64,000 nt of DNA from positions 186,001-250,000 of the forward strand of contig MKUP01000012.1 of the NCBI GenBank assembly GCA_001898625.1, in the 5' to 3' direction. Below, in pieces: positions 2,887-26,812 of the stretch. Made by a program: the position numbers and the translations under genes. Below the pieces are notes generated by a model that worked only from the letters and a program-made list of their open reading frames with translations, had not been told where the DNA came from and ran no database searches. Every line of letters begins with the position of its first letter. Within the stretch, counting starts at the first letter, position 1. This DNA comes from Burkholderiales bacterium 67-32. GTDB lineage: Bacteria > Pseudomonadota > Gammaproteobacteria > Burkholderiales > Burkholderiaceae_B.

Positions 2887-2942
2887 GCGTCAAGCGTATA
2901 ACGAATCTGCGTCCTCAGGGGCTACACGACGTAACCGCGGCC

Positions 2943-4202
2943 ATGCAGAATCCCGTCCTGTCGAACGATTACGGGTTTACGAGCATGTCATCCATACAAA
3001 TCGCGCATGGTGCGTCCCTATCTGCCGCACCCGCCGCGCGGCTAACCCCCTCGCTGGTCGGCCTGCTGGCCGCCGGGGCGGGGCTGAGCGTCGCTTCCAT
3101 CTACTACAGCCAGCCCATGCTGGGGCTGCTGGGCCAGGACCTGGGGGCCGGCGAAGGCACCGTGGGCCTGGTGCCCACCCTGACCCAGCTGGGCTATGCG
3201 GCCGGCATCCTGCTGCTCGCACCGCTGGGCGACCGCTACGACCGCCGCCGCATCATCGTCGGCAAGTCGGCGGTGCTGGCGCTGGCCCTGTTGCTGAGCG
3301 GCCTGGCGCCGGGCGTGGGCTGGCTGCTGGCCGCCAGCCTGGCGGTGGGACTGGCGGCCACGCTGGCCCAGGACATCGTGCCGGCGGCCGCGACACTGGC
3401 GCCCGACGCGCAGCGCGGGAAGGCCGTGGGCACCGTCATGACCGGCCTGCTGCTGGGCATCCTGTTGTCGCGCGTGATCAGCGGCTTCGTGGCCGAATAC
3501 TGGAACTGGCGCGCCATGTTCCTGGTGGCCGCGGTGTCCATCGCCGGCGTGGGCGTGGTGGCGGCGCGCGGCCTGCCGCGCTTCGCGCCCACCGCGCAGA
3601 TGGGATACGGCGCGCTGCTGGCTTCCATGGCGCAGTTGTGGCGCCGCCATGGCGCGCTGCGCCGCGCGGTCTACGCGCAGGGCCTGCTGGCGGTGGGCTT
3701 CAGCGCCTTCTGGTGCACGCTGGCCGTGATGCTGCACGACCGCTTCCACCTGGGCAGCACGGCGGCCGGCGCCTTCGGCCTGGCCGGCGCGGCGGGCGCC
3801 CTGGCCGCGCCCTTCGCGGGAAGGCTGGCCGATCGCCGCGGCTCCGACGGCGTGGCCCGTATCGCTACGATCATCGCGGCGGTCTCGTTCGCCAGCCTGG
3901 CATTGACCGAAGTACTGCCGGCGCCGGCGCAGCTTGCCTTGCTGGTGGCCAGCGCCATCGGCTTCGACTTCGGCGTGCAGGCTTCGCTGGTGGCCAGCCA
4001 GACCCAGGTGTACGGACTGGAGCCCGCGGCGCGCAGCCGCCTGAACGCCCTGCTGGTGGCCGGGATGTTCATCGGCATGGCCGCTGGCGCGGGGCTGGGC
4101 AGCCTGGTGTGGGCGCATGCGGGCTGGCTGGGCGTGGTGGGGCTGGCCACGGCGACGGCGCTGGGGGCGTTGGGGGTGAGGATGGGGCGCGTGGGGGGCT
4201 AG
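2943..4202 (+). CDS. MFS transporter, sugar/drug efflux type
   Basis: About 419 aa with twelve predicted membrane helices. The segment SIYYSQPMLGLLGQDLG in helix 1 and the loop 2-3 motif GDRYDRRR are typical of the YnfM/arabinose-efflux-like MFS group. An ATG at 2985 (MSSIQIAHG) is an alternative start that removes 14 poorly conserved-looking residues; neither has a clear ribosome site. It is divergent from a LysR gene and stands alone, followed by an AT-rich regulatory stretch. An efflux role for a small organic compound is the most likely function; the substrate is unknown. Confidence 0.9.
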   Translation: MQNPVLSNDYGFTSMSSIQIAHGASLSAAPAARLTPSLVGLLAAGAGLSVASIYYSQPMLGLLGQDLGAGEGTVGLVPTLTQLGYAAGILLLAPLGDRYDRRRIIVGKSAVLALALLLSGLAPGVGWLLAASLAVGLAATLAQDIVPAAATLAPDAQRGKAVGTVMTGLLLGILLSRVISGFVAEYWNWRAMFLVAAVSIAGVGVVAARGLPRFAPTAQMGYGALLASMAQLWRRHGALRRAVYAQGLLAVGFSAFWCTLAVMLHDRFHLGSTAAGAFGLAGAAGALAAPFAGRLADRRGSDGVARIATIIAAVSFASLALTEVLPAPAQLALLVASAIGFDFGVQASLVASQTQVYGLEPAARSRLNALLVAGMFIGMAAGAGLGSLVWAHAGWLGVVGLATATALGALGVRMGRVGG

Positions 4203-4253
4203 CAGGAACTGGGGGCTGCGAGCCCCTGAATTTTATGCTAAATCAAATGAAAA

Positions 4254-4285
4254 TATACTTGTAAAAGAACTTGCATATGCAAGTT
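4254..4285 (+). promoter_or_regulatory. Probable promoter -10 box with overlapping MarR-type palindromic operator
   Basis: TATACT at 4254-4259 is a good -10 box, although its -35 is poor. Immediately downstream lies a perfect 18-bp palindrome, AACTTGCATATGCAAGTT, at 4268-4285, preceded by a further ACTTG half-site at 4257-4261. The position over the likely transcription start and about 50 nt before a MarR gene fits autorepression. This is inference from sequence alone. Confidence 0.55.
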
Positions 4286-4332
4286 TATCTGTGAGTAAAT
4301 AGGCCCATCGCAACCATCACGGTTCCTTCGCC

Positions 4333-4845
4333 ATGGCCTCCAGCTCGACGCGTTCCTCCCGCCGCAAGCCGGTCGATCCGGTCGATGACGAGCCGGATGC
4401 CTTCTCGGACCAGCGCAGCGAAAAGAAGACGGCCTATCTGCTGCGCCAGGTGTCCGAGCGACTGGCGATCAGCCTGACCGAGGCGCTGCGCCCCTTCAAC
4501 CAGACCGCCAGCGTGTACCGGGTGCTGATCGCCCTTACCCGCCGCGACCATGCCCGCATGCGCGACCTGATCGAGCTGACGCTGGTCGAGTCGTCCACGC
4601 TCAGCCGCACCATCGGCCGGATGGAGGCGCAGGAACTGGTCACGGTCGAACAGGACGACGACGATGGCCGCGCGGTCATCATCTCCATCACCCAGGCCGG
4701 GCGCGATCTGCTCGACGCGATGCTGCCCGCGGTGTCGGCGCAGTACGAGTGGTCGGTGCACGACGTTCCGCCGGCGGACCTGGAGATCCTGCGCACCACG
4801 CTGCAGCGCATGCTGCGCAACCTGAAGATTTCTCCCATCAAGTAA
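4333..4845 (+). CDS. MarR-family transcriptional regulator
   Basis: 170 aa. The winged helix core runs from about residue 45 to 140, with MRDLIELTLVESSTLSRTIGRMEAQELVTVEQDDDDGRAVIISIT matching the MarR recognition helix and wing. The first 30 residues are charged and variable. It is the first gene of a run of same-strand genes (aminotransferase, gamma-glutamyltransferase-like, M24 peptidase, OCD-like, Bug) and lies behind an 18-bp palindrome, so it probably represses this cluster until the substrate or an intermediate binds. No strong ribosome site precedes the ATG. Confidence 0.92.
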   Translation: MASSSTRSSRRKPVDPVDDEPDAFSDQRSEKKTAYLLRQVSERLAISLTEALRPFNQTASVYRVLIALTRRDHARMRDLIELTLVESSTLSRTIGRMEAQELVTVEQDDDDGRAVIISITQAGRDLLDAMLPAVSAQYEWSVHDVPPADLEILRTTLQRMLRNLKISPIK

Positions 4846-4901
4846 GCGGCAAATCCCTTCAAGTAGTTCTTGCGGTCGGCCTTTTCTGGAAGGAGGCGGT
4901 C

Positions 4902-5831
4902 ATGGAAGAGCAGGGTTCACCCATCTGGATCGATGGCAAGCTGGTTGATTGGGCGGATGCCTCCGTCCATTTCGTCAGCAACAGTTTCCAGTATGGATTC
5001 GGGGTCTTTGAAGGCATACGCGCCTATGACGGCGAGCAGGGAACCTCCATATTCCGGCTCGATGCCCACATCGACCGGCTGTTCAAGTCGGCCAAGATCA
5101 TCGGGCTGGACATTCCCTACACCCGGGAAACCATCGTCGAGGCCTGCCGCGAGACGGTCGCGGCCAGCGGCCACGCGAAGTGCTATCTGCGGCCGGTGGC
5201 CTACATCGGCTACGGCGGCATGGGGCTGAACTACACGGGCTGCAAGGTCAGCGTGGGCATCGCGGTCTGGTTCTGGGGCGAATACCTGGGCCAGGGCAAG
5301 CTGGAGCAGGGCACGCGCGTCAAGACTTCGTCCTATACGCGGCATCACATCAATTCGAACATGTCCAAGGCCAAGGCCTGCGGCAACTACATGCTGTTCC
5401 AGATGGCCCGCACCGACGCGCTGCGCGGCGGCTACGACGAGGCGCTGCTGCTGGACGCCGAGGGGCACGTGGCCGAGGGTTCGGTGGAGAACGTCTTCAT
5501 CGTGCGCGACGGGCAACTGATCACGCCGCCGCTGACCTACATCCTGGACGGCATCACCCGCGATTCCATCATCCAGCTGGCGCGCGGCGCGGGCCTGGTG
5601 GTGCGCGAGGAGTTCTTCACCCGCGACGCCATGTACATCGCCGACGAGGCCTTCTTCGTCGGCACCGGAGCCGAGGTCACGCCGGTGGTGGCGCTGGACG
5701 ACCGGCCTATCGGCGAGGGCGTGCCGGGACCGGTGACGCGGCGCCTGCAGTCGTTGTACTTCGATGCCGTGCGCGGGCGCGACGAACGCTACGCGCACTG
5801 GGTCACCCCGGTGGCCGGCGTTCCCGCCTGA
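4902..5831 (+). CDS. Branched-chain amino acid aminotransferase-like PLP enzyme (class IV)
   Basis: 309 aa, the normal IlvE length. AGGAGG at 4891-4896 sets the ATG at 4902 (MEEQGSPIWIDGKLVDW). Fold-type IV features are present: FQYGFGVFEGIRAY near the N-terminus, the PLP lysine K158 in SKAKACGNY, and E192 in AEGSVENVF. It transfers amino groups between branched-chain-type amino acids and 2-oxoglutarate in the cytosol. The downstream gene starts 5 nt after its stop. Because it sits in an accessory cluster rather than with ilv genes, it is probably a catabolic paralogue acting on a related amino acid. Confidence 0.9.
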   Translation: MEEQGSPIWIDGKLVDWADASVHFVSNSFQYGFGVFEGIRAYDGEQGTSIFRLDAHIDRLFKSAKIIGLDIPYTRETIVEACRETVAASGHAKCYLRPVAYIGYGGMGLNYTGCKVSVGIAVWFWGEYLGQGKLEQGTRVKTSSYTRHHINSNMSKAKACGNYMLFQMARTDALRGGYDEALLLDAEGHVAEGSVENVFIVRDGQLITPPLTYILDGITRDSIIQLARGAGLVVREEFFTRDAMYIADEAFFVGTGAEVTPVVALDDRPIGEGVPGPVTRRLQSLYFDAVRGRDERYAHWVTPVAGVPA

Positions 5832-5836
5832 CCGAT

Positions 5837-7426
5837 ATGGAACTCGACTACGCATTGCCCTATCCGTCGCAGCGTTCGCCGGTACTGGCGCGCAACGTGG
5901 TCTGCGCCTCGCAGCCGCTGGCGGCGCAGGCCGGGCTGCGCATGCTGCTGCAAGGCGGCAACGCCGTCGATGCGGCGGTGGCGGCGGCCATCGCTTCCAC
6001 GGTGGTCGAGCCCACCGCCAACGGCGTGGGCAGCGATGCCTTCGCGGTGGTCTGGGACGGCGCGAACCTGCACGGGCTGAATGCCAGCGGCCGCGCGCCG
6101 GCAGCCTGGGAGGCGGCGCGCTTCGCCGGGGGCCAGACCATGCCGCGCCGCGGCTGGGACAGCGTCACGGTGCCGGGCGTGGTGTCGTCATGGGTGGCGC
6201 TGAGCCGGCGCTTCGGCGCACTGCCTTTCGAGCGCCTGTTCGAGCCGGCGGTGGACTATGCGCGGCAAGGGTTTCCGGTCAGTCCGCTGATCGCCGCGCT
6301 GTGGCATCGCATCGCGCCCAACTACGCTGACCAGCCGGGCTTCGCCGAAGCTTTCCTGCCCGGGGGGCGTGCACCGGCCGCCGGCGAGATCTTCCGCAAC
6401 GCGCCGCTGGCCGGCACGCTGGAGGCCATCGCCGCCACGGGCGGCGAGGCCTTCTACCGGGGCGCGCTGGCCGAGGCCCTGGTCGCGCATGCCGCGCGCC
6501 ACGGCGGCGCGATGACGCGGGACGACCTGGCGGCGCACGAGGCGCACTGGTGCGGAACGCTGTCGCAGCGCATCGGCGACGTCGACGTGCACGAGATTCC
6601 GCCCAATACGCAGGGCATCGCCACGCTGATCGCGCTGGGTATCCTGGCGCGCCACGACCTGCGGCGGCACGCGGTCGACAGCGTCGAGGCCATGCATTTG
6701 CAGATCGAGGCGATGAAGCTGGCGTTCGCCGACGTCGACGCTTTCGTCGGCGATCCGGCCTCGATGCAGATCGATCCACGGTCCCTGCTGGCGGACGATT
6801 ACCTGGATGCGCGCGCGGCGCTGATCGATCCGGCGCGCGCGGGCGATTTCGGCGCGGGCGCGCCGCGCCAGGGCGGCACGGTCTATCTGGCCGCGGCCGA
6901 CGCGGCGGGCATGATGGTCTCGTTCATCCAGTCCAACTACGAGGGCTTCGGGTCAGGCGTGGTCGTGCCCGGCACCGGCATCAGCCTGCAGAACCGCGGC
7001 ATGGGCTTTTCGCTGCGGCCCGGGCATCCCAACCTGGTGGGGTCGCGGCGGCTGCCGCTGCACACCATCATCCCCGGCTTCGCGATGCGCGCGGGCCAGC
7101 CCGCGATGAGCTTCGGCGTGATGGGCGGGCCGATGCAGGCGCAAGGGCATCTGCAACTGGCCGTGCGCACGCAGTTGTACGGCCAGAACCCGCAGGCCGC
7201 GTCCGACGCGCCGCGCTGGCAGGTGGTGTCGGGACGCAAGGTGCTGGTCGAGGCCGGCATGCCGGAAGCCGTCGTGGCGGGCCTGCTCGCGCGCGGCCAC
7301 GAGGTGCGGCAGGAATCGCCGCAGGCCGCCTTCGCGTTCGGCGGCGCGCAGTTGATCCTGCGCGGCGGCGACGGCTACGTGGCGGGTTCGGATCATCGCA
7401 AGGACGGCGCGGCCGTCGGCTTTTGA
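5837..7426 (+). CDS. Gamma-glutamyltransferase/acylase family protein (Ntn hydrolase)
   Basis: 529 aa. The precursor would autocleave before T348 in RQGGTVYLAAAD, which aligns with the catalytic threonine of gamma-glutamyltranspeptidases. The large-subunit motif GGNAVDAAVAAAIASTVVEP lies at about 40-60 and the small subunit has the GTGISLQNRG and LVGSRRLPLHTIIPG stretches. No signal peptide is visible, so it is probably cytosolic, unlike classical GGT. The start at 5837 (MELDYALPYPSQRSPV) lies 5 nt after the aminotransferase stop. It could hydrolyse a gamma-glutamyl or other amide and feed the neighbouring peptidase and aminotransferase. Substrate is inferred only. Confidence 0.88.
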   Translation: MELDYALPYPSQRSPVLARNVVCASQPLAAQAGLRMLLQGGNAVDAAVAAAIASTVVEPTANGVGSDAFAVVWDGANLHGLNASGRAPAAWEAARFAGGQTMPRRGWDSVTVPGVVSSWVALSRRFGALPFERLFEPAVDYARQGFPVSPLIAALWHRIAPNYADQPGFAEAFLPGGRAPAAGEIFRNAPLAGTLEAIAATGGEAFYRGALAEALVAHAARHGGAMTRDDLAAHEAHWCGTLSQRIGDVDVHEIPPNTQGIATLIALGILARHDLRRHAVDSVEAMHLQIEAMKLAFADVDAFVGDPASMQIDPRSLLADDYLDARAALIDPARAGDFGAGAPRQGGTVYLAAADAAGMMVSFIQSNYEGFGSGVVVPGTGISLQNRGMGFSLRPGHPNLVGSRRLPLHTIIPGFAMRAGQPAMSFGVMGGPMQAQGHLQLAVRTQLYGQNPQAASDAPRWQVVSGRKVLVEAGMPEAVVAGLLARGHEVRQESPQAAFAFGGAQLILRGGDGYVAGSDHRKDGAAVGF

Positions 7427-11398: not shown

Positions 11399-11427
11399 GT
11401 TCGCATGCTAGAACCCAGGGGATGAAA

Positions 11428-12558
11428 ATGAGTGACACCGCGGTCAAGGAATTGGTCCAGTTGATTCCGGAAGGCCTGCCGACCGGCCTGCGCAACTACT
11501 GGTATCCGATCCTGCAAACGGAAGAACTGCCCGCCGGCAAGCCGGTCGGGCTGAAGGTGCTGGGCGAGAACCTCGCCGCCTGGCGCGGCGCCGACGGCCA
11601 GCCGAATGTCGTGCGCGATCGCTGTCCGCATCGCAGCATCCGGCTGTCGGTCGGCCGTGTCATGGATGGCGAGCTGCAATGCCTGATGCATGGGCTGCGT
11701 TTCGACGGCGAAGGCCGCTGCACGCTGATTCCGTGGGAAACCGCGCATACCCCCCACCACGACCGGCTGGGCGTGCCCGCGTATCCGGCGCGGGAACTGG
11801 GGGGCTACGTCTGGGCCTATCTGGGCGATCCGGTCCGCTTCCCGCCGCCGCCGCTCGAGACCCAGGTTCCCGAGGAACTGCTCAAGCCCGACGAATTCAT
11901 CTGCTTCCGGCTGCCCACCTCCACCTGGAAGGCCAACTGGCTGCTGGCCATCGACGGCAGCGACGGTTTCCACGCCATCGTGCTGCACACCGATTCACAG
12001 GCCGTGCACCGCGCCGAACGCAAGCCGGGCAGCACCGAGGTGCCGCTGGAAGACCGCCGCATCAAGATCATCCGTACCTCGCACGGCGTGCGCGGTGTGT
12101 CGGTCGACCTGGAAGGCGAGCCGATCAACCACGGCCACTTCACCGTGGACGTCAAGGGCCAGCGCTTCTGCCTGCCCTGTCTGACCACCAATCCCATCAT
12201 GCCGGCGCCGGGCGCCGCGCCCTACGCGTCGCGGCTGTGGCAAATTCCGCAGGATGCCCAGCACACGACGGTGGTCCGCTTTCTGTCCTGGCGGGCCCGG
12301 ACCGAGGCCGAACGCGCCACCGCCACGCGCCTGTTCAACGAGGTGGCGCTGCCGCGGCTGGAGCTGGTCAACGCCGAGGACGCCTTCGCCGCCGAGGCGC
12401 AGGGCGACCTGATCGAGGCACGCTCGCGCGAATACCTGCTGGCACCGGACGAGGACGTGATCAAGGTGCGCCGGCTGCTGCGCACCGCCTTCGTGTCGCA
12501 GGCCCAGCATGGCGAGCGCATCGACAACCCGGCCGGCTCGCTGGCCTACCCCGCCTAG
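11428..12558 (+). CDS. Rieske (2Fe-2S) aromatic ring-hydroxylating/O-demethylating oxygenase
   Basis: 376 aa from the ATG at 11428, which has AGGGG at 11417-11421; an ATG at 11422 touches that site. The Rieske cluster ligands are C66, H68, C85 and H88 (CPH...CLMH). The mononuclear iron site is suggested by D176, H182 and H187 (DGSDGFHAIVLH). Length and layout resemble the one-component alpha-subunit oxygenases such as vanillate demethylase and phthalate 4,5-dioxygenase, which need a separate reductase. No reductase gene is seen in the window. An SDR and a Bug receptor follow in the same operon. Confidence 0.92.
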   Translation: MSDTAVKELVQLIPEGLPTGLRNYWYPILQTEELPAGKPVGLKVLGENLAAWRGADGQPNVVRDRCPHRSIRLSVGRVMDGELQCLMHGLRFDGEGRCTLIPWETAHTPHHDRLGVPAYPARELGGYVWAYLGDPVRFPPPPLETQVPEELLKPDEFICFRLPTSTWKANWLLAIDGSDGFHAIVLHTDSQAVHRAERKPGSTEVPLEDRRIKIIRTSHGVRGVSVDLEGEPINHGHFTVDVKGQRFCLPCLTTNPIMPAPGAAPYASRLWQIPQDAQHTTVVRFLSWRARTEAERATATRLFNEVALPRLELVNAEDAFAAEAQGDLIEARSREYLLAPDEDVIKVRRLLRTAFVSQAQHGERIDNPAGSLAYPA

Positions 12559-16561: not shown

Positions 16562-16626
16562 TTGACACGGTTTCTTCCTTTGCCGCACTATGGTCGATAA
16601 GCGGTCATTAATAACCGCTAAGCGGA
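16562..16626 (+). promoter_or_regulatory. Promoter region with IclR-type operator (copy 1)
   Basis: TTGACA at 16562-16567 is a perfect -35 box, with a weak -10 (CACTAT, 16586-16591). Just downstream, AGCGGT (16600-16605), 8 nt, ACCGCT (16614-16619), one A and AGCGGA (16621-16626) make three half-sites. The same arrangement occurs upstream of the IclR gene at 19756-19782. Its position across the likely start point suggests repression. Confidence 0.65.
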
Positions 16627-18938: not shown

Positions 18939-19703
18939 CTACATCGTGGCCGCGCGGATCTGCGAGGCGGCCTGCCGCAGTTCGGCCAGGTACAGTTTCA
19001 AGGCCTCTTCCTGCGTGACCTGTCCGGTCGGCAGGCTGACGTTGATCGCGGCGATGGTGTTGCCTTCCTGGTCGCGCACCGGCACGGCCAGGCCGCAGAT
19101 GGCCTCGTCCAGTTCGCCGTCTATCCAGACGTAGCCCTGCTTGCGCGCCGCCAGGATGTGCTCGCGCAGCGTCTCGGGATCGACCACGGTGGCGCCGGTC
19201 AGCCGCTTGAACGTGGTGGTTCGCAGATACTGTTCCAACGCCTCGTCCTTTAGTCCCGCCAGCAGAATGCGTCCCATCGACACCGCGTGCGCCGGCAGGC
19301 GGCTGCCCAGCGACGGGCTCATGGTCAGGATGCGCTTGGAGTGCTGGCGCTGGATGTAGACGATGTGTTCGCCGTCGAGCACCGACAGCGCGCACGACTG
19401 CTTGATTCGCCCGCACAGTTCTTCCAGGCTGAGCTGGGCCTGGCGCCAGTAGGGCAGGCTGTTCAGGTAGGACAGGCCCAGCCGCAACACGCGCGGGGTC
19501 AGCCAGTAGCGCTTGCCGTCGGTCTGCACGAAACCGAGTTCGATCAGGGTCAGCAGGAAGCGCCGCACCGCGGTGCGCGGCAGGTCCACCTCTTCGGCGA
19601 TCTCCGCCAGGTTCTTCCGATACGAGCCGTAGCCCATGGCCTCGATCACGGCCAGGCCGCGGGCGAAGGTGCGGACGAACGATTCGCTTTCTGGGGTCGC
19701 CAT
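18939..19703 (-). CDS. IclR-family transcriptional regulator
   Basis: 254 aa from the ATG at 19703, which follows GGAGG at a 4-nt spacing; an upstream in-frame ATG at 19742 overlaps the operator region and is unlikely. The winged helix is at about residues 10-75 (FARGLAVIEAMGYGSYRKNLAEIAEEVDLPRTAVRRFLLTLIELGFV), followed by the GAF-like ligand domain with RLPAHAVSMGRILLAGL. This PcaR/PcaU-type layout is common for regulators of aromatic catabolism. Operator copies lie in front of the Bug gene at 16645 and between this gene and the MaoC gene at 19831, so it probably controls both operons and itself. Confidence 0.93.
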   Translation of the reverse strand: MATPESESFVRTFARGLAVIEAMGYGSYRKNLAEIAEEVDLPRTAVRRFLLTLIELGFVQTDGKRYWLTPRVLRLGLSYLNSLPYWRQAQLSLEELCGRIKQSCALSVLDGEHIVYIQRQHSKRILTMSPSLGSRLPAHAVSMGRILLAGLKDEALEQYLRTTTFKRLTGATVVDPETLREHILAARKQGYVWIDGELDEAICGLAVPVRDQEGNTIAAINVSLPTGQVTQEEALKLYLAELRQAASQIRAATM

Positions 19704-19755
19704 GGGTCCTCCACGGCCTTGACAGCGCAGGCCGGAATCCAAATAATGGTCATAG

Positions 19756-19782
19756 AGCGGTTACTTGTATCCGCTAAGCGGT
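19756..19782. promoter_or_regulatory. IclR-type operator (copy 2) in the divergent promoter
   Basis: AGCGGT (19756-19761), 8 nt, TCCGCT (19770-19775), one A and AGCGGT (19777-19782) repeat the arrangement at 16600-16626. Over the 29 bases from the first half-site, 23 are identical between the copies. The site lies between the IclR gene and the divergent MaoC operon. Confidence 0.65.
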
Positions 19783-19830: not shown

Positions 19831-20307
19831 ATGACAACCGAGACAAGCTTCGAAACCGACTTCTGGAAAGACGAGCAATTGCGCAAGACCTGGGATGACA
19901 TCGTTCCCGGCGAACCGCGCAAGACCCTGCCCTACACGCTCACGCTGGAGGCTATCCAGAAATACTGCCGCGTGGTCGGCGACATGCATCCGCTCTACTT
20001 CGACGAGGAGTATGCGCGCAAGAGCCCCTACAAGGGCCTGATCGCCCCGCCGGCCATCCACATCCTGCTGATGTTCGCGTGCACCCCCACCGACGACTGG
20101 ATGCGCAGCCCCGGCACCGTCAACGCCGGCCAGTCGTGGAGCTACAACCTGCCGGCCCGGCCGGGCGACGTCATCCGGCTCGAAGCACGCGCGCTGGACA
20201 AGGTCATCAAGAAGAACCGCCTGTTCGTGGTGCACGACAACGTGTTCTTCAACCAGCGCGACGAAGTCATCTGCTCCGGCCGCGGCTGGACCATCCGCCC
20301 CTTCTGA
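19831..20307 (+). CDS. MaoC/hotdog-fold dehydratase-like protein, catalytic His replaced
   Basis: 158 aa from the ATG at 19831. The hydratase signature region is YCRVVGDMHPLYFDEEYA: the catalytic Asp is present as D51, but the His six positions later in active MaoC hydratases is Y56. It is therefore probably a structural partner rather than an active hydratase. The next gene, a second MaoC protein with an intact dyad, starts 9 nt downstream. This matches families where an active and an inactive hotdog subunit form a heteromeric enoyl-CoA hydratase, such as ChsH1-ChsH2. No strong ribosome site precedes the start. Confidence 0.86.
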   Translation: MTTETSFETDFWKDEQLRKTWDDIVPGEPRKTLPYTLTLEAIQKYCRVVGDMHPLYFDEEYARKSPYKGLIAPPAIHILLMFACTPTDDWMRSPGTVNAGQSWSYNLPARPGDVIRLEARALDKVIKKNRLFVVHDNVFFNQRDEVICSGRGWTIRPF

Positions 20308-20316
20308 AGGTCAATC

Positions 20317-20766
20317 ATGAGCAACGCATTCGACACCCTGAAGCCCGGCCTGACCATCGAGGGCACGCCTTTCTCCCCCACCCGCGAGACCATCCGCGCC
20401 TTCTGCGACGCCTCGCTGGACCACAACCCGCTGCACTGGGACGACGACTACATGAAGGGCGATTTCGGCCGGACCAACTTCGGCGGGATCATCATGCACG
20501 GCATGAACAACTTCGGCGTCATCACCAAGATGCTGACCGATTGGCTCTATCCGCTGGGCGGCATGCAGCGCCGGCTCGAGACGCGCTGGAAGGTCCCGGT
20601 CAAGCCGGGCGACACCATCACGCCCACCGCCACGGTCTCGGCCGTGCAGGCCACGAAGAAAAGCCGCTGGGCCACGCTGACGGTGCAGGTGGCGAACCAG
20701 CGCGGCGAGATCGTCGCGGCGGGCGAGGCCATGGTCGAGTTCCCGCACGAACTGGGCGCGGCCTGA
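20317..20766 (+). CDS. MaoC-family enoyl-CoA hydratase (intact catalytic dyad)
   Basis: 149 aa. FCDASLDHNPLHWDDDYM contains both catalytic residues, D35 and H40, and FGGIIMHGMNNFGVITKML continues the hotdog helix. It would add water to a 2-enoyl-CoA. AAGG at 20307-20310 is a weak ribosome site. It is encoded directly after the degenerate MaoC gene and upstream of CoA-transferase, OB-fold and thiolase genes, which supports a CoA-thioester side-chain pathway. A heteromer with the preceding protein is inferred. Confidence 0.89.
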   Translation: MSNAFDTLKPGLTIEGTPFSPTRETIRAFCDASLDHNPLHWDDDYMKGDFGRTNFGGIIMHGMNNFGVITKMLTDWLYPLGGMQRRLETRWKVPVKPGDTITPTATVSAVQATKKSRWATLTVQVANQRGEIVAAGEAMVEFPHELGAA

Positions 20767-20802
20767 GCACGCGCGCACGATAGATAGAAGAAAGGAGACG
20801 AC

Positions 20803-21780
20803 ATGACGATGCGCATCCAGCGTGCCCTTGCCGTGCTGGCCAGCGCGGCGGGCTTGGCCCTGCCCGCCCTGGCCCACGCCCAGAACTTTCCCACCCAGCC
20901 GGTCAGGATCGTCGTGCCGTTTCCCCCGGGCGGCACCACCGACATCCTGGCCCGCCAACTGGCGGCCGAGCTGCAGAAGAACTGGAGCCAGCCGGTCGTG
21001 GTGGAGAACCGCGCCGGCGCCAGCGGCACCATCTTCTCGGAACAACTGGCGGCCATGCAGCCCGACGGCTACACGCTGATGCTGACGGCCACGCACCACG
21101 TCATCAACCCCGGCCTGTACAAAAACCTGCGCTACAACACGCGCACCGACTTCACCCCCATCGCCCAGGTCGCGGCCGTGCCCAACGTGCTGGTGGTGAA
21201 CCATGCCTTTCCGGCGCGCACAGTGCAGGAACTGATCGCCTACGCCAGGCAGCATCCCGGCAAGGTGGATTTCGGTTCGGCCGGCACCGGCGGCGCCAAC
21301 CACCTGTCGGGCGAACTGTTCAAGTCCATGACCGGCATCCAGATGACGCACATCCCCTACAAGGGCGCGGCGCCGGCGCTGAACGACCTCTTGGGTGGCC
21401 AGATCCCGGTGATGTTCGACTCGGTGCCGGGCGTGATCCAGCACATCAAGTCGGGCCGCCTGCGGGCCCTGGGCGTGACTTCGCTCAAGCGTTCGCCCGC
21501 GCTGCCGGACGTGCCCACCCTCGACGAGGCGGGCGTGAAGGGCTTCGAGGCCACCGCCTGGTTCGGCCTGTACGGCCCGGGCCGCATGTCGCCCGAACTG
21601 GCCAGCCGGCTGTCGGCCGACGTGCGCAAGGCCTTGTCCAGCCCTACCGTACGCAAGGAGTTCGCGGCGCAGGGCGCCGAGCCCGGCACCATGACCCAGC
21701 CCGAGTTCGCCGCGTTCGTCGATGCCGAACTCAGCAAGTGGTCCAAGGTCATCACCGACGCCAACATCAAGATCGACTGA
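20803..21780 (+). CDS. Bug-family tripartite tricarboxylate transporter substrate-binding protein
   Basis: 325 aa behind AAGGAG (20792-20797). The leader ends near LAHAQNFPTQP, followed by VRIVVPFPPGGTTDILAR, VENRAGASGTIFS and QPDGYTLMLT. It is the second Bug gene under the same IclR regulator, here placed inside the MaoC - CoA-transferase operon. The two receptors (16645 and 20803) differ clearly in their ligand loops, so they may bind different compounds of the same pathway. Confidence 0.93.
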   Translation: MTMRIQRALAVLASAAGLALPALAHAQNFPTQPVRIVVPFPPGGTTDILARQLAAELQKNWSQPVVVENRAGASGTIFSEQLAAMQPDGYTLMLTATHHVINPGLYKNLRYNTRTDFTPIAQVAAVPNVLVVNHAFPARTVQELIAYARQHPGKVDFGSAGTGGANHLSGELFKSMTGIQMTHIPYKGAAPALNDLLGGQIPVMFDSVPGVIQHIKSGRLRALGVTSLKRSPALPDVPTLDEAGVKGFEATAWFGLYGPGRMSPELASRLSADVRKALSSPTVRKEFAAQGAEPGTMTQPEFAAFVDAELSKWSKVITDANIKID

Positions 21781-21787
21781 TTCCTAC

Positions 21788-23047
21788 ATGCCTTCCGAAA
21801 ACACGCAGGCCGCCGCGGGCGGCCAGACCGGCGCGCTGTCGCACATCCGCGTCCTGGACCTGTCGCGCATCCTGGCCGGCCCCTGGTGCACGCAGAACCT
21901 GGCCGACATGGGCGCCGAGGTCATCAAGGTGGAGCGCCCCGGCAGCGGCGACGACACCCGCGCCTGGGGGCCACCGTGGGTGCGCGACGCCCACGGCGGG
22001 GACAGCGGCGACTCCACCTACTACGCCGCCGCCAACCGCGGCAAGAAATCCATCACCATGGACATCGCCCGGCCCGAGGGCCAGGCACTGGTGCGCCGGC
22101 TGGCGGCCCGGTCCGACGTGGTGGTCGAGAACTACAAGATCGGCGACCTGAAACGCTACGGGCTGGACTACGACAGCCTGTCGCGCATCAACCCGCGCCT
22201 GGTGTATTGCTCCATCACCGGCTACGGGCAGGACGGCCCCAGCGCCCACAAGCCGGGCTACGACTTCGTGTTCCAGGCGCAGGGCGGCCTGATGAGCATC
22301 ACCGGCGAGCATGACCAACTGCCGGGCGGTGGCCCGCAGAAGGTCGGCGTCGCCATCGCCGACGTGATGACCGGCATGTATGCCACCATCGCCATCCTGT
22401 CCGCCCTGCAGCACCGCACCGTGTCGGACCGTGGCCAGTACATCGACATGGCGCTGCTGGACTGCATCGTGGCGCTGGGCGGCAACCAGGTCACCGGCTA
22501 CTTCGCCAACGGCAAGGTGCCGCACCGCTACGGCAACGCGCACGCCAGCCTCGTCCCCTACCAGGTGTTCGCGGTCGCCGACGGCGAGATCGTGGTGGCC
22601 GTGGGCAACGATAAGCAGTGGCAGCAATATTGCGCCGCCATCGAACGGCCCGACCTGGCCGGTAACGAACGCTGGAAGAAAGTCACGGGCCGCATCGTCG
22701 GCCGGCAGGAACTGGTGCCCGAGTTGGCCCGCACCATGCTGACCCGCCCGCGCGACGAATGGATCGCGCGGCTGGAAGCCCATGGCGTGCCCTGCGGGCC
22801 GATCAACGACTACGCCCAGGTGTTCGAGGACGCCCAGGTGCGGCATCGCGGATTGCGCGTGGACATGCCCAAGGCCGACGGCGGCATCGTCTCGACCATC
22901 GCCAGCCCGCTGCGCCTGCGCGGCACGCCGCCGGCCTACGACCGGCCGCCGCCCGTGCTGGGCGACTCCACCGACGCCGTGCTGCGCGACCTGGCCGATT
23001 GCAGCGACCAGGAGATCGCGGCCTTGCGCCGCGACGGCATCGTCTGA
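21788..23047 (+). CDS. CaiB/BaiF family (class III) CoA-transferase
   Basis: 419 aa from the ATG at 21788, 7 nt after the Bug stop and without a good ribosome site, so coupling is likely. The N-terminus IRVLDLSRILAGPWCTQNLADMGAEVIKVERP is diagnostic. The catalytic Asp lies in the KPGYDFVFQAQGGLMSITG stretch. Members move CoA between acids through an aspartyl-CoA intermediate. In this operon it would activate the imported acid before hydration and cleavage. Confidence 0.93.
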   Translation: MPSENTQAAAGGQTGALSHIRVLDLSRILAGPWCTQNLADMGAEVIKVERPGSGDDTRAWGPPWVRDAHGGDSGDSTYYAAANRGKKSITMDIARPEGQALVRRLAARSDVVVENYKIGDLKRYGLDYDSLSRINPRLVYCSITGYGQDGPSAHKPGYDFVFQAQGGLMSITGEHDQLPGGGPQKVGVAIADVMTGMYATIAILSALQHRTVSDRGQYIDMALLDCIVALGGNQVTGYFANGKVPHRYGNAHASLVPYQVFAVADGEIVVAVGNDKQWQQYCAAIERPDLAGNERWKKVTGRIVGRQELVPELARTMLTRPRDEWIARLEAHGVPCGPINDYAQVFEDAQVRHRGLRVDMPKADGGIVSTIASPLRLRGTPPAYDRPPPVLGDSTDAVLRDLADCSDQEIAALRRDGIV

Positions 23048-23073
23048 AGCGGCAGCCAACCATCACAGGAACC

Positions 23074-23460
23074 ATGGACCAAGAACGCCTTTCCTTGTCG
23101 CCGCTGGCGGCCTTCCGCGACCATCTCGCCCGCGGCGAGCTGGCCTATCAGTACGATCCGGCCAGTGGCCGCGCGGTGTTCCCGCCACGGGTCATCGGGC
23201 CCGGCACCGGCAATCCCGACCTGGCCTGGCGCGCCAGCGCGGGCCTGGGCACCGTGTACGCCGTCACCGTCATCAGCCCGCGCGACCAGGCGCCCTACAA
23301 CGTCGTGCTGGTCGACATGGACGAGGGCTTTCGCCTGATGAGCCGGGTCGAGGGCGTTCCGGCCGACGACGTGCGCATCGGCCTGCGCGTGCGCGCCCAG
23401 GTGCACACGCCGCCGGACGGCCAGCCGCCTTATCCTGTCTTCCTTCCGGAGGCCGCATGA
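23074..23460 (+). CDS. DUF35-type OB-fold protein without its zinc-ribbon cysteines
   Basis: 128 aa. The layout matches DUF35 acyl-CoA-associated proteins: an N-terminal helix, a rubredoxin-like zinc ribbon and an OB-fold ending in PPYPVFLPE. In place of the CxxC pairs the sequence reads YQYDPASGRAVFPPRVIGPG at 25-44, and the whole protein has no cysteine. Related proteins (BbsA, the DUF35 domain of ChsH2) bind and activate a thiolase-like partner. The partner gene starts inside its stop codon with a 4-nt ATGA overlap. Confidence 0.82.
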   Translation: MDQERLSLSPLAAFRDHLARGELAYQYDPASGRAVFPPRVIGPGTGNPDLAWRASAGLGTVYAVTVISPRDQAPYNVVLVDMDEGFRLMSRVEGVPADDVRIGLRVRAQVHTPPDGQPPYPVFLPEAA

Positions 23461-24611
23461 ACGCCCTGCAACGCGGCGCCTGCGCCATCGTCGGCGTGGC
23501 CGAATCGGACCTGGGGCAGGTGGCCGAAGGCCTGTCGCCGCTGGACCTGATGGGCCAGGCCACGCACCACGCGCTGCGGGACTGCGGCCTGTCGCTGCGC
23601 GACGTGGACGGCGTGTTCGCCACCACCTCGCAAAGCCGCATGCCCACCCTGGCGCTGTGCGAATACCTGGGCATCGCGCCGCGCTACCACGACGGCACGA
23701 ACATCGGCGGATGCAGCTTCATGTCCATGGTGGCGCACGCGCAGCTCGCGATCCAGTCCGGCCTGTGCGAGGTCGCGCTGATCGCCTACGGCAGCACCCA
23801 GCGCAGCGCCGGCCGCAGCAACGTGGCCGCGCCCGACGTCAATCCCTACGAGGCGCCCTACCGGCCCATCTATACCGCCAGTTCGTATGCGCTGGCGGCC
23901 TCGCGCCACATGCACCAGTACGGCACCACGCGCGAACAGCTCGCGCAGATCGCGGTGGCCGCGCGGCAATGGGCCCTGCTCAACCCCGCCGCGTGGGAGA
24001 AGACTCCGCTGACCGTGGACGAGGTACTGGGCGCGCGCATGCTCAGCCATCCCCTGACGGTGCGCGACTGCTGCCTCGTCACCGACGGTGGCGGCGCGCT
24101 CATCATGACTTCGGCCGAGCGGGCGGCCACGCTGTGCAAGCCGCCCGCCTACGTGCTGGGCGTGGGCGAACATCTCAGCCACTACCACATCACCAGCATG
24201 CCCGACCTCACGGTCACGGGTGCGGCGCGATCCGGCGCGGCGGCCTACGCCATGGCCGGCCTCGCGCCGCGCGACATCGACGCGGTCCAGGTGTACGACG
24301 CCTTCACCATCACCACCCTGCTGTTCCTGGAAGACCTGGGCTTCTGCCCCAAGGGCGAGGGCGGCCGTTTCGTGGCCGACGGCGCCATCGCGCCGGGCGG
24401 CGGCCTGCCGGTCAACACCAATGGCGGCGGCCTGTCGTACTGCCATCCCGGCATGTACGGGGTGTTCGTGCTGATGGAGGCCGTGCGCCAGGTTCGTGGC
24501 GAAGCGGGCAGGCGTCAGGTGGCCGGTTGCGAGACGGCCATCGCGCATGGCAACGGCGGGACCTTGTCCAGCCAGAGCACGGTGATACTGGGCAGCGCGG
24601 CGACGGTCTGA
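23457..24611 (+). CDS. Thiolase-superfamily / lipid-transfer protein-like enzyme (putative thiolase or retro-aldolase)
   Basis: 384 aa, starting in the ATGA overlap with the OB-fold gene and preceded by GGAGG at 23448-23452. The fold signatures are IVGVAESDLGQ at the N-terminus, NIGGCSFMSMVAHAQLAI around C86, VQVYDAFTITTLLFLEDLGFC, and VNTNGGGLSYCHPGMYG near the C-terminus. It belongs to the SCP2-thiolase group, which includes BbsB and the steroid retro-aldolase Ltp2. With the OB-fold protein it probably cleaves a beta-hydroxy or beta-keto acyl-CoA. Which of the two reactions it performs is not clear from sequence. Confidence 0.87.
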   Translation: MNALQRGACAIVGVAESDLGQVAEGLSPLDLMGQATHHALRDCGLSLRDVDGVFATTSQSRMPTLALCEYLGIAPRYHDGTNIGGCSFMSMVAHAQLAIQSGLCEVALIAYGSTQRSAGRSNVAAPDVNPYEAPYRPIYTASSYALAASRHMHQYGTTREQLAQIAVAARQWALLNPAAWEKTPLTVDEVLGARMLSHPLTVRDCCLVTDGGGALIMTSAERAATLCKPPAYVLGVGEHLSHYHITSMPDLTVTGAARSGAAAYAMAGLAPRDIDAVQVYDAFTITTLLFLEDLGFCPKGEGGRFVADGAIAPGGGLPVNTNGGGLSYCHPGMYGVFVLMEAVRQVRGEAGRRQVAGCETAIAHGNGGTLSSQSTVILGSAATV

Positions 24612-24653: not shown

Positions 24654-25574
24654 CTATCCGGGCAGATCGATGTCGGCCATGCCGATGGCCTGTTCTCCCG
24701 CCGCCGCATACAGGAGATAGGCCCGGCCGTCCTCGACGAAGATCGCGGGATCGCGCAACTGGGCGACCGGCTCGAAAACCGGGCCCCGCTCGGAAGGGCG
24801 CCAAGGCAGGCGGGCGCCTTCGTAGTCGCATTCAGGCCGCATGACCGTGGTGATCGGGCCGGGCGTCCAGGCGTGCCAATCGGGCCGCAGGTCGATGGCC
24901 GTGTGAAGAATGCTCTCCGGACAGTCTCCGGCGCGCGTGAAGAAGACGTGCAGGCGCGAACCCGATACGTGCACCGCGCAATGCCGAAAAGACGCGGGGA
25001 ACAGGATCGGTCCGGGTTCAAATCCCGCGATGCCGTCGCGCGAGCGGTAGAGCACGCCGGGCATGGCCATCGCGTAGGTCCAGCCCGCCCATTGGAAAAC
25101 CCGGAAATACGAGGCGCCGAGCACCTCGCCGCGTGCCTGGAACGAGAGCCCGTCGCGCGAAAGCGCGAGCTTGGTGCGCTGCGTGCCTATCCAGCGTCCG
25201 GCCTCGCCGAAGCGCTGCTCGTGGCCGTCCGTGGGGCCACCCGATGGGAAGGCGACGCCGTGGAAGTACATCCGGATCCGCCGCTGCGAGTGATCCACAT
25301 GGACGTCCGGCGATGCGACGTGGTCCGTGCACGTGGAGTCCTCGACGTTCAGCACGCCGGGCGCATGGATCGTCCACGGTCCACGCAGATCGTCGGCGTA
25401 GGCGAGGCGAATGAAGCCGCCCTGGTGATGGGCAAAGTAAAGGTAATAGCGGCCGAGCGGATGGGGGATCCAGTCGGGCACCCGGATCAACGAGGGGCCG
25501 TCGATGTTGTTGCCGATGGAGGGGTCCAGCGCGCGGGTAATGATGGGGTTCTGGGCAAAACGCCGGAGCTTCAT
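24654..25574 (-). CDS. Five-bladed beta-propeller glycosidase-like protein (GH43/GH32-like)
   Basis: 306 aa from the ATG at 25574. The N-terminus NPIITRALDPSIGNNIDGPSLIRVP and the segments GRYYLYFAHHQGGFIRLAYADDL and VASPDVHVD resemble the repeated blades of GH43/GH32-type propellers, with likely acidic residues in each. No signal peptide is seen, so a cytosolic role is likely. Its start overlaps the stop of the M28-like gene by ATGA. A glycosidase call is from fold resemblance only; the substrate and even hydrolytic activity are unproven. Confidence 0.68.
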   Translation of the reverse strand: MKLRRFAQNPIITRALDPSIGNNIDGPSLIRVPDWIPHPLGRYYLYFAHHQGGFIRLAYADDLRGPWTIHAPGVLNVEDSTCTDHVASPDVHVDHSQRRIRMYFHGVAFPSGGPTDGHEQRFGEAGRWIGTQRTKLALSRDGLSFQARGEVLGASYFRVFQWAGWTYAMAMPGVLYRSRDGIAGFEPGPILFPASFRHCAVHVSGSRLHVFFTRAGDCPESILHTAIDLRPDWHAWTPGPITTVMRPECDYEGARLPWRPSERGPVFEPVAQLRDPAIFVEDGRAYLLYAAAGEQAIGMADIDLPG

Positions 25575-26812
25575 GGGTTCGCCTCGCTCCAGGCCTGCCG
25601 CGGTGACGTCACGACGGCTTCCATGAGCGCCATGTGCGCGCGGACCACGGGTGCCAGCAGGCCGGCATCGACGGTATCCAGGGTGTCTTCCCGCGTATGG
25701 AAGGCGCGGGGCATGCCCAGCACGGCGAAGCCTTCGTAGCCTCGCGAGAGTATCGTGGCCAGTTCGCTGACGCCGCCGAGCACCGGCGCGGGGCATTCGA
25801 GTCCGCTCAGCCCCGCGAAGGCCTCGGACGCGGCATCCCGGAAACGGTCGGACGTCATGAGGATGCGATTGGAATCGGCGGAGCCCAGCATGCGCTGTAG
25901 ACCCCGGAATTCGATGTGGCCGCGCGTGGCGAGCGAGGCGCCCAGATGGACCCAGACGTCGGTGTCGCCGGGTGGCGGCGCGAACCGCATGGCTCGGTGC
26001 GCACCGGCGAAATGGTATTCGTGCGCGCCGCTGTTCATGAAGAAGACCGAGTGCGCCGGGAACCGTCCTGTCACCCATTCGGCCAATGCGAGGAACGCGG
26101 CCGTGCCGGTGCCCCGTTCGCTGACGCAGCCGAACCATCCCGTTCGAGGCGTCGACAGCGCCACCCAGCGCGGACCGCGATCGAGCACGCCATGCACGTT
26201 GCAGGTAGGGCGCATGGCCCCGCGGCCGTGAAGGACCAGTGTCGCCGGCGACGCGCTCCGGGCGGCCGCCAGGAACGGCTCCAGCTCGGCCGGAGCCAGG
26301 ATGCCGACCGGCAGCGGTGCCACGGGTTCTTCCAGGTTGCAGTTCAGGCCCATGATCCGGCCGGTCGGCCCGACGGGAACGATGACGAGCGCCACCGCCC
26401 CGGCCTTGGCGGCGGCTTGCACAAGCGGCCGGATCGCTGGCGACTGCATGGAAGCATGCCGCCCATGGGGCAGCACGATGAGTGCGATGCGGCCCCTGGC
26501 GTCGCCAGCGTCATGGGGGGAGCGGACGACCGCGAGCGGCGCGGCGAGGCCGGCAGGCGAAGTGGAGGTGACCGGCGGCTGGGCATGGAGCGTTGCGGTG
26601 AATCCGCCGGCCGTGAGCGTGCATTCGGCGGGTTCGAAGCAGGGAATGTCGAACGCCTGCCGAGCCACCGCGTAGCCCATGCCTGCCATCCGCTCGGCTA
26701 TCCAGTCGGCCGCGGCGAGATCCCCCGCCCCGCCCGACATCATGTCGCCGAATGCGGCATACCGCTCCAGATCGGCCTTCAGCTCCCGGACCAGATCGTC
26801 CACGGCCATCAT
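25571..26812 (-). CDS. M28-peptidase-like protein with degraded metal site
   Basis: 413 aa. The start at 26812 overlaps the Bug stop by ATGA; a second ATG at 26809 is equally possible. A PA-like insert lies at about 95-190, followed by an M28-type exopeptidase core. The C-terminal ligand H372 (FHTREDT) and a Glu, E265, in SGAHEYHFAG are present. The first metal-site strand reads ALSTPRTGWFGCVSERGTG (218-236) where active members have HxD and a later Asp. The protein therefore probably binds metal differently or not at all. It has no signal peptide. Confidence 0.72.
   Translation of the reverse strand: MMAVDDLVRELKADLERYAAFGDMMSGGAGDLAAADWIAERMAGMGYAVARQAFDIPCFEPAECTLTAGGFTATLHAQPPVTSTSPAGLAAPLAVVRSPHDAGDARGRIALIVLPHGRHASMQSPAIRPLVQAAAKAGAVALVIVPVGPTGRIMGLNCNLEEPVAPLPVGILAPAELEPFLAAARSASPATLVLHGRGAMRPTCNVHGVLDRGPRWVALSTPRTGWFGCVSERGTGTAAFLALAEWVTGRFPAHSVFFMNSGAHEYHFAGAHRAMRFAPPPGDTDVWVHLGASLATRGHIEFRGLQRMLGSADSNRILMTSDRFRDAASEAFAGLSGLECPAPVLGGVSELATILSRGYEGFAVLGMPRAFHTREDTLDTVDAGLLAPVVRAHMALMEAVVTSPRQAWSEANP

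What the first reader, a model, noticed from the sequence alone, without database searches (positions are those of the whole stretch)
19831..24611. Split hydratase plus OB-fold/thiolase cassette resembling a ChsH1-ChsH2-Ltp2 or BbsAB machine
Seen: a MaoC protein lacking its catalytic His (D51, Y56), a second MaoC protein with an intact dyad (D35, H40), a CaiB CoA-transferase, a DUF35-type OB-fold protein and an SCP2-thiolase-like protein, with a stop-start overlap between the last two. Known: in actinobacterial steroid side-chain degradation an active and an inactive MaoC subunit form one hydratase, and a DUF35 domain activates the thiolase-like retro-aldolase Ltp2; BbsA-BbsB is a related OB-fold/thiolase pair. 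Inference: this is a betaproteobacterial version with the DUF35 domain as a separate protein, shortening the side chain of an imported acid after CoA activation.
Basis: partly seen in the sequence, partly recalled or inferred. Interest (0 to 1): 0.7.

Follow-up and report, generated by a model that had tools for sequence, protein, structure and literature searches.

The report
Inducible hydratase–aldolase cassette, zinc-free partner
A dedicated, switchable set of bacterial genes most likely attaches coenzyme A to an unknown, perhaps aromatic, acid, adds water with a two-part enzyme, and splits the carbon chain with a thiolase-shaped aldolase whose small partner protein has lost its usual zinc site; it resembles known steroid-degrading machines but appears to be a separate, non-steroid branch.

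Summary
MaoC1–MaoC2 are adjacent in all 30 distinct loci mapped, and the Tyr/His asymmetry is kept. In nine genomes picked, an operator-like site occurs once each, in the IclR–MaoC1 gap. In one genome DUF35 and thiolase form one 547-aa ORF. The nearest solved relatives of known function are the aldolases Sal and Ltp2; thiolase nucleophile Cys86 is C, A or S among cassette orthologues, while Tyr280 and His330 are invariant. Best reading: CoA transfer, hydration, retro-aldol cleavage, resting on sequence alone. The DUF35 lacks the zinc cysteines. Substrate unknown; a PhzS-like flavin monooxygenase behind a second operator-like site hints at an aromatic acid. The MaoC interface test was inconclusive. 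New variant of a known kind.

The parts
16601..16625 (+). second operator-like site (1 mismatch), 20 bases upstream of the TctC2 gene
   Evidence: 6 sites with up to 2 mismatches in the window against 2.7 expected, so not significant alone; exact copy before the same gene in G195 and G196, 1 mismatch in G190; perfect copy upstream of TctC2-FADmo in L012
16645..17628 (+). TctC2, second tripartite tricarboxylate (Bug) binding protein, possibly co-regulated
   Evidence: PF03401 230.3 bits; linked to FADmo and IclR in Pigmentiphaga loci L121, L123, L124 and in L012
17636..18886 (+). FAD-dependent monooxygenase, PRK07538 subfamily, PhzS-like, possibly co-regulated
   Evidence: NF005720 478.6 bits, cut-off 400; best PDB match 2rgj/3c96, flavin-containing monooxygenase, 312 bits (that these are PhzS is recalled)
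18939..19703 (-). IclR-family regulator of the PcaR/PcaU/PobR type (start chosen at the ATG; an upstream TTG would give 19742)
   Evidence: TIGR02431 269.7 bits, just under its cut-off of 284.75
19719..19747 (+). sigma-70-type promoter TTGACA-17-AATAAT for the cassette
   Evidence: 11 of 12 positions; two promoter-like sites in the stretch against 0.1 expected in shuffles
19757..19781 (+). operator-like site GCGG-N10-CCGC-TNA-GCGG, overlapping the expected transcription start
   Evidence: strict pattern once per genome in 9 of 9 genomes picked, reversed-pattern control 0
19831..20307 (+). MaoC1: FAS1-DH/MaoC hot-dog protein with D51 but Y56 in place of the catalytic His; predicted substrate-binding partner
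20317..20766 (+). MaoC2: hot-dog hydratase subunit with intact D35/H40 dyad
20809..21780 (+). TctC/Bug periplasmic binding protein (start 20803 also possible)
   Evidence: PF03401 267.7 bits
21788..23047 (+). CaiB-type (family III) CoA-transferase, nearest to succinate-glutarate CoA-transferase but under its cut-off
   Evidence: PF02515 423.9 bits; NF052585 458 bits, cut-off 750
23074..23460 (+). DUF35/OB-fold (ChsH2 C-terminal type) protein lacking all four zinc cysteines
   Evidence: PF01796 59.8 bits
23457..24611 (+). thiolase-fold protein, predicted acyl-CoA aldolase; Tyr280 and His330 invariant, position 86 variable
   Evidence: NF004811 613.1 bits, cut-off 421

Best explanation
A dedicated, inducible catabolic cassette. 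An IclR regulator of the PcaR/PobR kind controls it from one operator over the cassette promoter (inferred from a conserved site). A carboxylic acid is taken up with the help of the TctC/Bug protein, CaiB puts CoA on it, MaoC1 (substrate-binding, inactive) and MaoC2 (catalytic) form one hydratase that turns the 2-enoyl-CoA into a 3-hydroxyacyl-CoA, and a DUF35-thiolase-fold complex splits this by retro-aldol cleavage into an aldehyde or ketone and a shorter acyl-CoA, with Tyr280 as base (as in Ltp2 and Sal) and His330, at the place of Ltp2's Tyr344, as the likely acid. The lyase pair is an exchangeable end module. Shown by sequence: the gene set, its conservation, the residues, the fusion of DUF35 with the thiolase-like protein in one genome. 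Inferred: every reaction, the complexes, the regulation, the substrate (perhaps aromatic, since a PhzS-like flavin monooxygenase lies behind a second operator-like site).
For: MaoC1-MaoC2 adjacent in 30 of 30 distinct loci (the window, 24 loci, L012 and L014, 3), with the Y56/H40 asymmetry; ChsH2 has the same His-to-Tyr change (PMC11321319 section 7). DUF35 and thiolase fused in one 547-aa ORF in G106, a one-contig genome. Nearest PDB entries of known function are Sal (9myr) and Ltp2 (6ok1), by sequence and by fold (model pLDDT 80.9, pTM 0.87). Position 86 is C, A or S among cassette orthologues while Y280 and H330 are in 95 of 95 scored rows; Tyr302 of Sal and Tyr294 of Ltp2 are the catalytic bases. 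In the 16 cassettes with the lyase pair, TctC, CaiB and DUF35 fill the space between MaoC2 and the thiolase, with no dehydrogenase among them. Strict operator pattern once per genome in 9 of 9 picked; second site before TctC2-FADmo.
Against: The lyase pair is absent or replaced in 11 of 27 cassettes, and those 11 genomes hold no thiolase above 67% identity elsewhere, so the core works without it. In L140, L142 and L143 its place is taken by a pcaF-type thiolase, which would fit a thiolase step. Sal needs Cys304; the window has Ala282 there, and C304A killed Sal, so the chemistry would have to use His330 instead, untested. Cys86 is present in the window itself. The AlphaFold2 model of the joined MaoC pair did not show a double hot-dog (pLDDT 59.3, pTM 0.54, TM-score about 0.34 to double hot-dogs at rmsd 18-19). 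The operator-like site was not found within 1 mismatch in L014 or in L190-L192. The tree does not resolve Sal and Ltp2 relative to this clade. Dehydrogenase genes further away were not ruled out.
Confidence: 0.55

Rival explanations
1. The DUF35-thiolase pair is an ordinary CoA-dependent thiolase, for example for 3-oxoadipyl-CoA or a similar 3-oxoacyl-CoA, with the oxidation step supplied from elsewhere in the genome.
For: A thiolase over the pcaF cut-off follows CaiB at the same place in L140 and L143, and L142 has one 93% identical to that of L143, each with CoA-transferase genes behind; the regulator is PcaR/PobR-like; BbsB is a DUF35-dependent thiolase (molecule name); PMC6449761 (passages) predicts a COG1545+COG183 pair beside the tfd genes as a 3-oxoadipyl-CoA thiolase (that COG1545 is DUF35 is recalled); Cys86 is present in the window protein.
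Against: Position 86 is Ala in 7 and Ser in 1 of 16 distinct cassette orthologues, the window included; the His of HDCF/HDAF is Tyr in all scored rows; the stretch where classical thiolases have CxG reads HGNGG in most rows (placing it is by eye); no dehydrogenase between hydratase and lyase.
Confidence: 0.22
2. The core (CaiB plus the MaoC pair) is a CoA-cycling hydratase: it converts an unsaturated acid to its hydroxy acid by passing CoA from product to substrate, and the DUF35-thiolase pair is a passenger with a separate job.
For: Core with no lyase at the locus in L126, L127, L130, L131, L132, L137 and L144 (7 of 27 cassettes); CaiB with a hydratase is the logic of the carnitine system (recalled).
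Against: The lyase genes keep the same place in 16 of 27 cassettes; in L192 CaiB is replaced by an AMP-forming ligase, which activates but does not cycle CoA.
Confidence: 0.13
3. A steroid or bile-acid side-chain system like ChsH1-ChsH2-Ltp2 or Shy-Sal.
For: Same protein kinds; nearest characterised enzymes are steroid aldolases.
Against: CaiB rather than a CoA ligase and no acyl-CoA dehydrogenase in the cassette; own-genome KshA_C matches are two at 26.5 bits (over the cut-off of 23.3 but low; no positive control, so not decisive); the three IgR-type residues and fusion of ChsH2 are not met; some neighbours suggest aromatic acids.
Confidence: 0.06

Closest known systems
ChsH1-ChsH2-Ltp2 (actinobacteria; ORF40-44 of Comamonas testosteroni TA441, abstract of PMC12502768)
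   Same: active plus inactive MaoC subunits with His-to-Tyr, DUF35, thiolase-fold aldolase with catalytic Tyr
   Different: DUF35 is a separate (once thiolase-fused) protein without zinc cysteines, His330 at the place of Ltp2's Tyr344, CaiB/TctC/IclR context, no acyl-CoA dehydrogenase in the cassette, no steroid link found
Shy-Sal of Comamonas testosteroni (PDB 9myr)
   Same: proteobacterial DUF35-aldolase pair; best fold match of known function
   Different: Sal uses Tyr302/Cys304 (YDCY), here YDAF; Shy is a MaoC-DUF35 fusion whose MaoC part is a homodimer, with a C3H1 zinc site; here two MaoC proteins and a zinc-less DUF35
BbsA-BbsB benzoylsuccinyl-CoA thiolase
   Same: separate DUF35 plus thiolase-fold protein, two genes
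   Different: BbsB has Cys aligned with position 86 and HDAF (alignment); here the Cys is not conserved and His is Tyr
IpfD-IpfE of ibuprofen degradation (Sphingomonas, Rhizorhabdus)
   Same: SCPx-type thiolase plus a companion protein removing an acyl-CoA group in Proteobacteria (PMC6063337, PMC9195938, passages; that IpfE is a DUF35 protein is recalled)
   Different: works on a ring-dihydroxylated aryl-propionyl-CoA with a dioxygenase; sequences not compared here
4u4e putative thiolase of Sphaerobacter thermophilus
   Same: closest solved sequence (385.6 bits) and fold, SYTHPGMYG and YDSF motifs
   Different: no function given in the entry title

Membership tests
ChsH1-ChsH2-Ltp2 | heteromeric MaoC hydratase with one subunit lacking the catalytic His | tested here: inconclusive
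   sequence part met: Y56 in 30 of 31 MaoC1 rows, H40 in 31 of 31 MaoC2 rows; the heteromer itself was not shown
ChsH1-ChsH2-Ltp2 | DUF35 fused to the inactive MaoC protein | tested here: not met
   separate ORF; in L129 fused to the thiolase-like protein instead
ChsH1-ChsH2-Ltp2 | Ltp2 catalytic pair Tyr294/Tyr344 | tested here: not met
   Tyr280 matches Tyr294; Tyr344 is His330 (alignment, counts)
ChsH1-ChsH2-Ltp2 | acts on C3 side-chain steroids | not testable with these tools
   no assay; KshA_C only low-scoring in the genome
Shy-Sal | Sal catalytic pair Tyr302/Cys304 | tested here: not met
   YDAF: Ala282 in 95 of 95 scored rows
Shy-Sal | C3H1 zinc site in DUF35 | tested here: not met
   0 of the 4 zinc-cysteine positions hold Cys in 21 of 22 cassette rows, 1 of 4 in one
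BbsAB | thiolase with nucleophile Cys and HDAF His | tested here: not met
   position 86 varies C/A/S; His replaced by Tyr280
NCBIfam NF004811 (PRK06158) thiolase-fold subfamily | score over the curated cut-off | tested here: met
   613.1 bits, cut-off 421
DUF35/OB_ChsH2_C (PF01796) | OB-fold domain over cut-off | tested here: met
   59.8 bits, cut-off 27.1
DUF35/OB_ChsH2_C (PF01796) | zinc ribbon with four Cys before the OB fold | tested here: not met
   zf-ChsH2 14.4 bits, cut-off 23.2
PcaR/PcaU/PobR regulators (TIGR02431) | score over the curated cut-off | tested here: not met
   269.7 bits, cut-off 284.75; three orthologues 263-271

The most novel reading that the evidence does not exclude
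A third, non-steroid branch of thiolase-fold retro-aldolases: catalysis by Tyr280 and a re-used thiolase His330, activated by a DUF35 partner that has lost its zinc site, and plugged as an exchangeable end module into a CoA-dependent hydration pathway for an imported aromatic acid under one IclR operator.
Probability: 0.4. Interest if true: 0.68.

Novelty: new variant of a known kind. Interest (0 to 1): 0.5.

Why it matters
Relatives of this protein are labelled 'acetyl-CoA acetyltransferase' or 'thiolase' wherever the 30 plasmid rows listed carry a label, and one search found 1 to 9 related matches in each of 20 genomes. If they are aldolases, many annotations of 3-oxoacyl-CoA thiolysis are wrong, and the steroid enzymes are a special case of a wider way to shorten acids without a dehydrogenase. 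The natural swap of lyases behind one conserved activation-hydration core, the DUF35-thiolase fusion, and the zinc-free DUF35 give simple systems in which to test what DUF35 does. A dedicated operator gives a route to the inducer, hence the substrate.

Tried and rejected
Steroid reading: tested only with KshA_C in the own genome (26.5 bits twice, over the cut-off of 23.3); low and without a positive control, so left as unsupported, not excluded. MaoC1-MaoC2 interface: an AlphaFold2 run on both genes read as one chain gave low confidence and no double hot-dog arrangement; reported as inconclusive. MaoC1's short central helix (73-83) against MaoC2's long one (219-242) in that model resembles the ChsH2/ChsH1 contrast, but these stretches are of low to middling confidence. 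DUF35-thiolase interface: not modelled, since the fused protein comes from a locus fetched by a tool whose loci structure prediction does not list as admitted; I did not send it. Tree: cassette thiolases form one clade (6 rows, 100/100), within a clade with 4u4e (96/97), but Sal, Ltp2 and BbsB are long branches and unresolved. Relaxed operator searches (1 mismatch) gave about as many hits for the reversed control as for the pattern (for G000 11 against 16), and G196 has a third exact match far from the cassette; so only sites in the IclR-MaoC1 gap and before TctC2 are used. No site within 1 mismatch in L014, L190, L191 or L192. First MAFFT alignments of the joined MaoC chain were wrong in the second half and not used. 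Literature: 9 searches counted; no title or abstract listed there was about this cassette; most subscription journals are not held. Papers: PMC12329534 outline and sections 6, 9 and part 1 of 11; PMC11321319 outline, section 7 and part 1 of section 10; PMC12502768 outline with abstract; PMC9195938, PMC6063337, PMC2954200 and PMC6449761 passages.
Full report
What is there. The window lies in a 6.66 Mb genome whose nearest named records are Pigmentiphaga. At 19831-24611 six genes run on the + strand with gaps of 7 to 42 bases and a final ATGA overlap: MaoC1, MaoC2, TctC, CaiB, DUF35, thiolase-like. Pfam and NCBIfam scores are; the thiolase-like protein is over the cut-off of subfamily NF004811/PRK06158 (613.1 against 421). 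A divergent IclR gene scores 269.7 bits with the PcaR/PcaU/PobR model, below its cut-off of 284.75.

The cassette elsewhere. The thiolase-like protein brought in 80 loci, the best of 585 that were confirmed; eight carry this cassette (L009, L010, L012, L013, L014, L016, L017, and L011, whose contig begins at TctC). The other 72 have the thiolase with other neighbours, and all 80 have a DUF35-type ORF. Frequent neighbours there are crotonase-type hydratases, CoA ligases and dehydrogenases. A search with MaoC1 at E <= 1e-40 found it in 25 of 268 genomes of the family, the own genome included, and in 6 of 399 genomes sampled from the order, three of them already known. I fetched the 24 other neighbourhoods and the three new ones. 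Five of the eight loci are the same contigs as five of the 24 (equal contig lengths), so the distinct set with MaoC1 is 30: the window, 24, L012, L014, and L190-L192. MaoC1 and MaoC2 are neighbours in 30 of 30. TctC and CaiB follow in 27 of 30; L128 has none nearby, L191 has no CaiB nearby, and in L192 an AMP-forming ligase stands in CaiB's place.

A swappable end. For the 27 distinct loci other than L190-L192 (L190 is cut by its contig end after CaiB), the DUF35-thiolase pair directly follows CaiB in 16 (13 of 24, plus window, L012, L014). In 11 it does not. In L126, L127, L130, L131 and L132 a spermidine-synthase-type gene follows instead (Pfam for L127, L130, L131; L126 and L132 are 71-74% identical to it); L137 has a MarR-GNAT gene; L144 a gene of another kind (read, not searched); L128 keeps only the MaoC pair. 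In L140, L142 and L143 a thiolase and a CoA-transferase pair follow; the thiolases of L140 and L143 are over the pcaF cut-off (711 and 719 bits against 597) and that of L142 is 93% identical to L143's. The 11 genomes without the pair hold thiolases of at most 67% identity to the window's, against 77-98% for the best match in 9 genomes with it (in G198 the copy is split over two contigs at 85-87%; four further genomes with the pair were not in that call).

Evidence for the two complexes. In G106, a one-contig genome, DUF35 and the thiolase-like protein are one 547-aa ORF holding PF01796 and PF22691. This natural fusion is the best evidence that the two work together. For the MaoC pair the evidence is conserved adjacency and asymmetry: D51 31/31, Y56 30/31, D35 31/31, H40 31/31 (five duplicates included, window not). 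ChsH2, the inactive half of ChsH1-ChsH2, has Tyr in place of His too (PMC11321319, section 7 read). AlphaFold2 on the two read as one chain was inconclusive.

Aldolase or thiolase. By sequence the nearest solved chains are 4u4e (no known function), then 9myr, 6ok1 and BbsB 7pxp; by fold 4u4e, 9myr (titled Sal-Shy(DUF35) aldolase), 6ok1 (Ltp2-ChsH2(DUF35) aldolase), then thiolases. In Sal, Tyr302 and Cys304 are catalytic; in Ltp2, Tyr294 and Tyr344 (PMC12329534, sections 6, 9 and part 1 of 11 read). In the window Tyr280 stands at Tyr302/Tyr294, Ala282 at Cys304, and His330 at Tyr344 (alignment). Across 96 rows over 55% identity, Tyr280, Ala282 and His330 hold in all 95 that could be scored; position 86, aligned with the BbsB cysteine, is S in 73, A in 12, C in 11 (duplicates and own-genome copies included). 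Among the 16 distinct cassette orthologues, the window included, it is C in 8, A in 7, S in 1. A nucleophile that drifts to Ala is hard to square with thiolysis. Against this, an Ala at that place kills Sal, and a pcaF-type thiolase sits at the same place in three loci. I therefore put the aldolase at 0.55 and a thiolase at 0.22.

Zinc-free DUF35. The four zinc-cysteine positions hold no Cys in 21 of 22 cassette rows (17 distinct loci) and one in the other; of 76 further rows 34 have none, 40 have one and only two own-genome paralogues (L003, L006) have four. PMC12329534 states that the homologues compared there use four Cys, Shy excepted. The loss goes with the PRK06158-type thiolases in general, not only with the cassette.

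Regulation. Of the 24 loci, 23 have sequence upstream of MaoC1; 22 match GCGGNT-N8-CCGCYNAGCGG exactly in the IclR-MaoC1 gap and L139 with one mismatch. L012 has it with one mismatch; L014 only with two, no better than chance; L190, L191 and L192 have none within one mismatch, so the site is a feature of the family and near kin. A stricter form occurs once per genome in each of nine genomes that I picked, and its reversed control never. In the window the site is at 19757-19781, just behind a TTGACA-17-AATAAT promoter. A 1-mismatch copy lies 20 bases before TctC2 (16645), which is followed by a PhzS-like flavin monooxygenase; alone it would not be significant, but it is exact at the same place in G195 and G196, and in L012 a perfect copy precedes the same two genes, which there lie on the other side of the cassette. 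P. kullae (L009/L122) has the cassette but only a 30% identical monooxygenase. This suggests one regulon and an aromatic acid. Other neighbours, two UbiD-type decarboxylases in L191 and pcaFIJ-type genes in L140, L142 and L143, point the same way but are weak.

Mobility. The cassette is on plasmid pA82 of Achromobacter xylosoxidans A8 and on a plasmid of A. insolitus, annotated gene by gene without a pathway.

Verdict. It works, on the sequence evidence, like a ChsH1-ChsH2-Ltp2 machine; it is not a member of that family, of Shy-Sal or of BbsAB, since defining features were tested and not met. The substrate is unknown.

Noticed in passing
L067, L080, L084, L085, L088 (about 1.6-8 kb): DUF35-thiolase relatives (65-67% identity) sit in a repeated cluster with a crotonase-type hydratase, an SDR, a class I CoA-transferase and a nitronate-monooxygenase-like gene in Bordetella, Achromobacter and Allopusillimonas; it recalls the IpdABC ring-opening set, not tested.
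   Followed up: partly
L004 and L006 (own genome, C6:336334 and C23:309076): Two further thiolase paralogues carry YDCF, as in SLPs and close to Sal's YDCY, one beside a four-cysteine DUF35 gene; candidates for Sal-type aldolases.
   Followed up: no
window 11422-12558: A Rieske-type ring hydroxylase with weak likeness (77 bits, cut-off 600) to a 4beta-methylsterol monooxygenase model, conserved near the cassette in L121, L123 and L124.
   Followed up: partly
window 24654-26138 (-): Directly downstream and convergent, a protein with only a very weak match to glycosyl hydrolase family 43 (16.1 bits, cut-off 32.2).
   Followed up: no
L191 (G320) 2540-6710 (-): Two UbiD-type decarboxylase genes with TctC and IclR genes, divergent from a MaoC1-MaoC2 pair that has no CaiB or lyase behind it.
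   Followed up: partly
L036, L043, L056, L065, L066, L072: Metagenome bins titled Bordetella parapertussis that may be misnamed; an impression from the varied neighbours, not checked.
   Followed up: no
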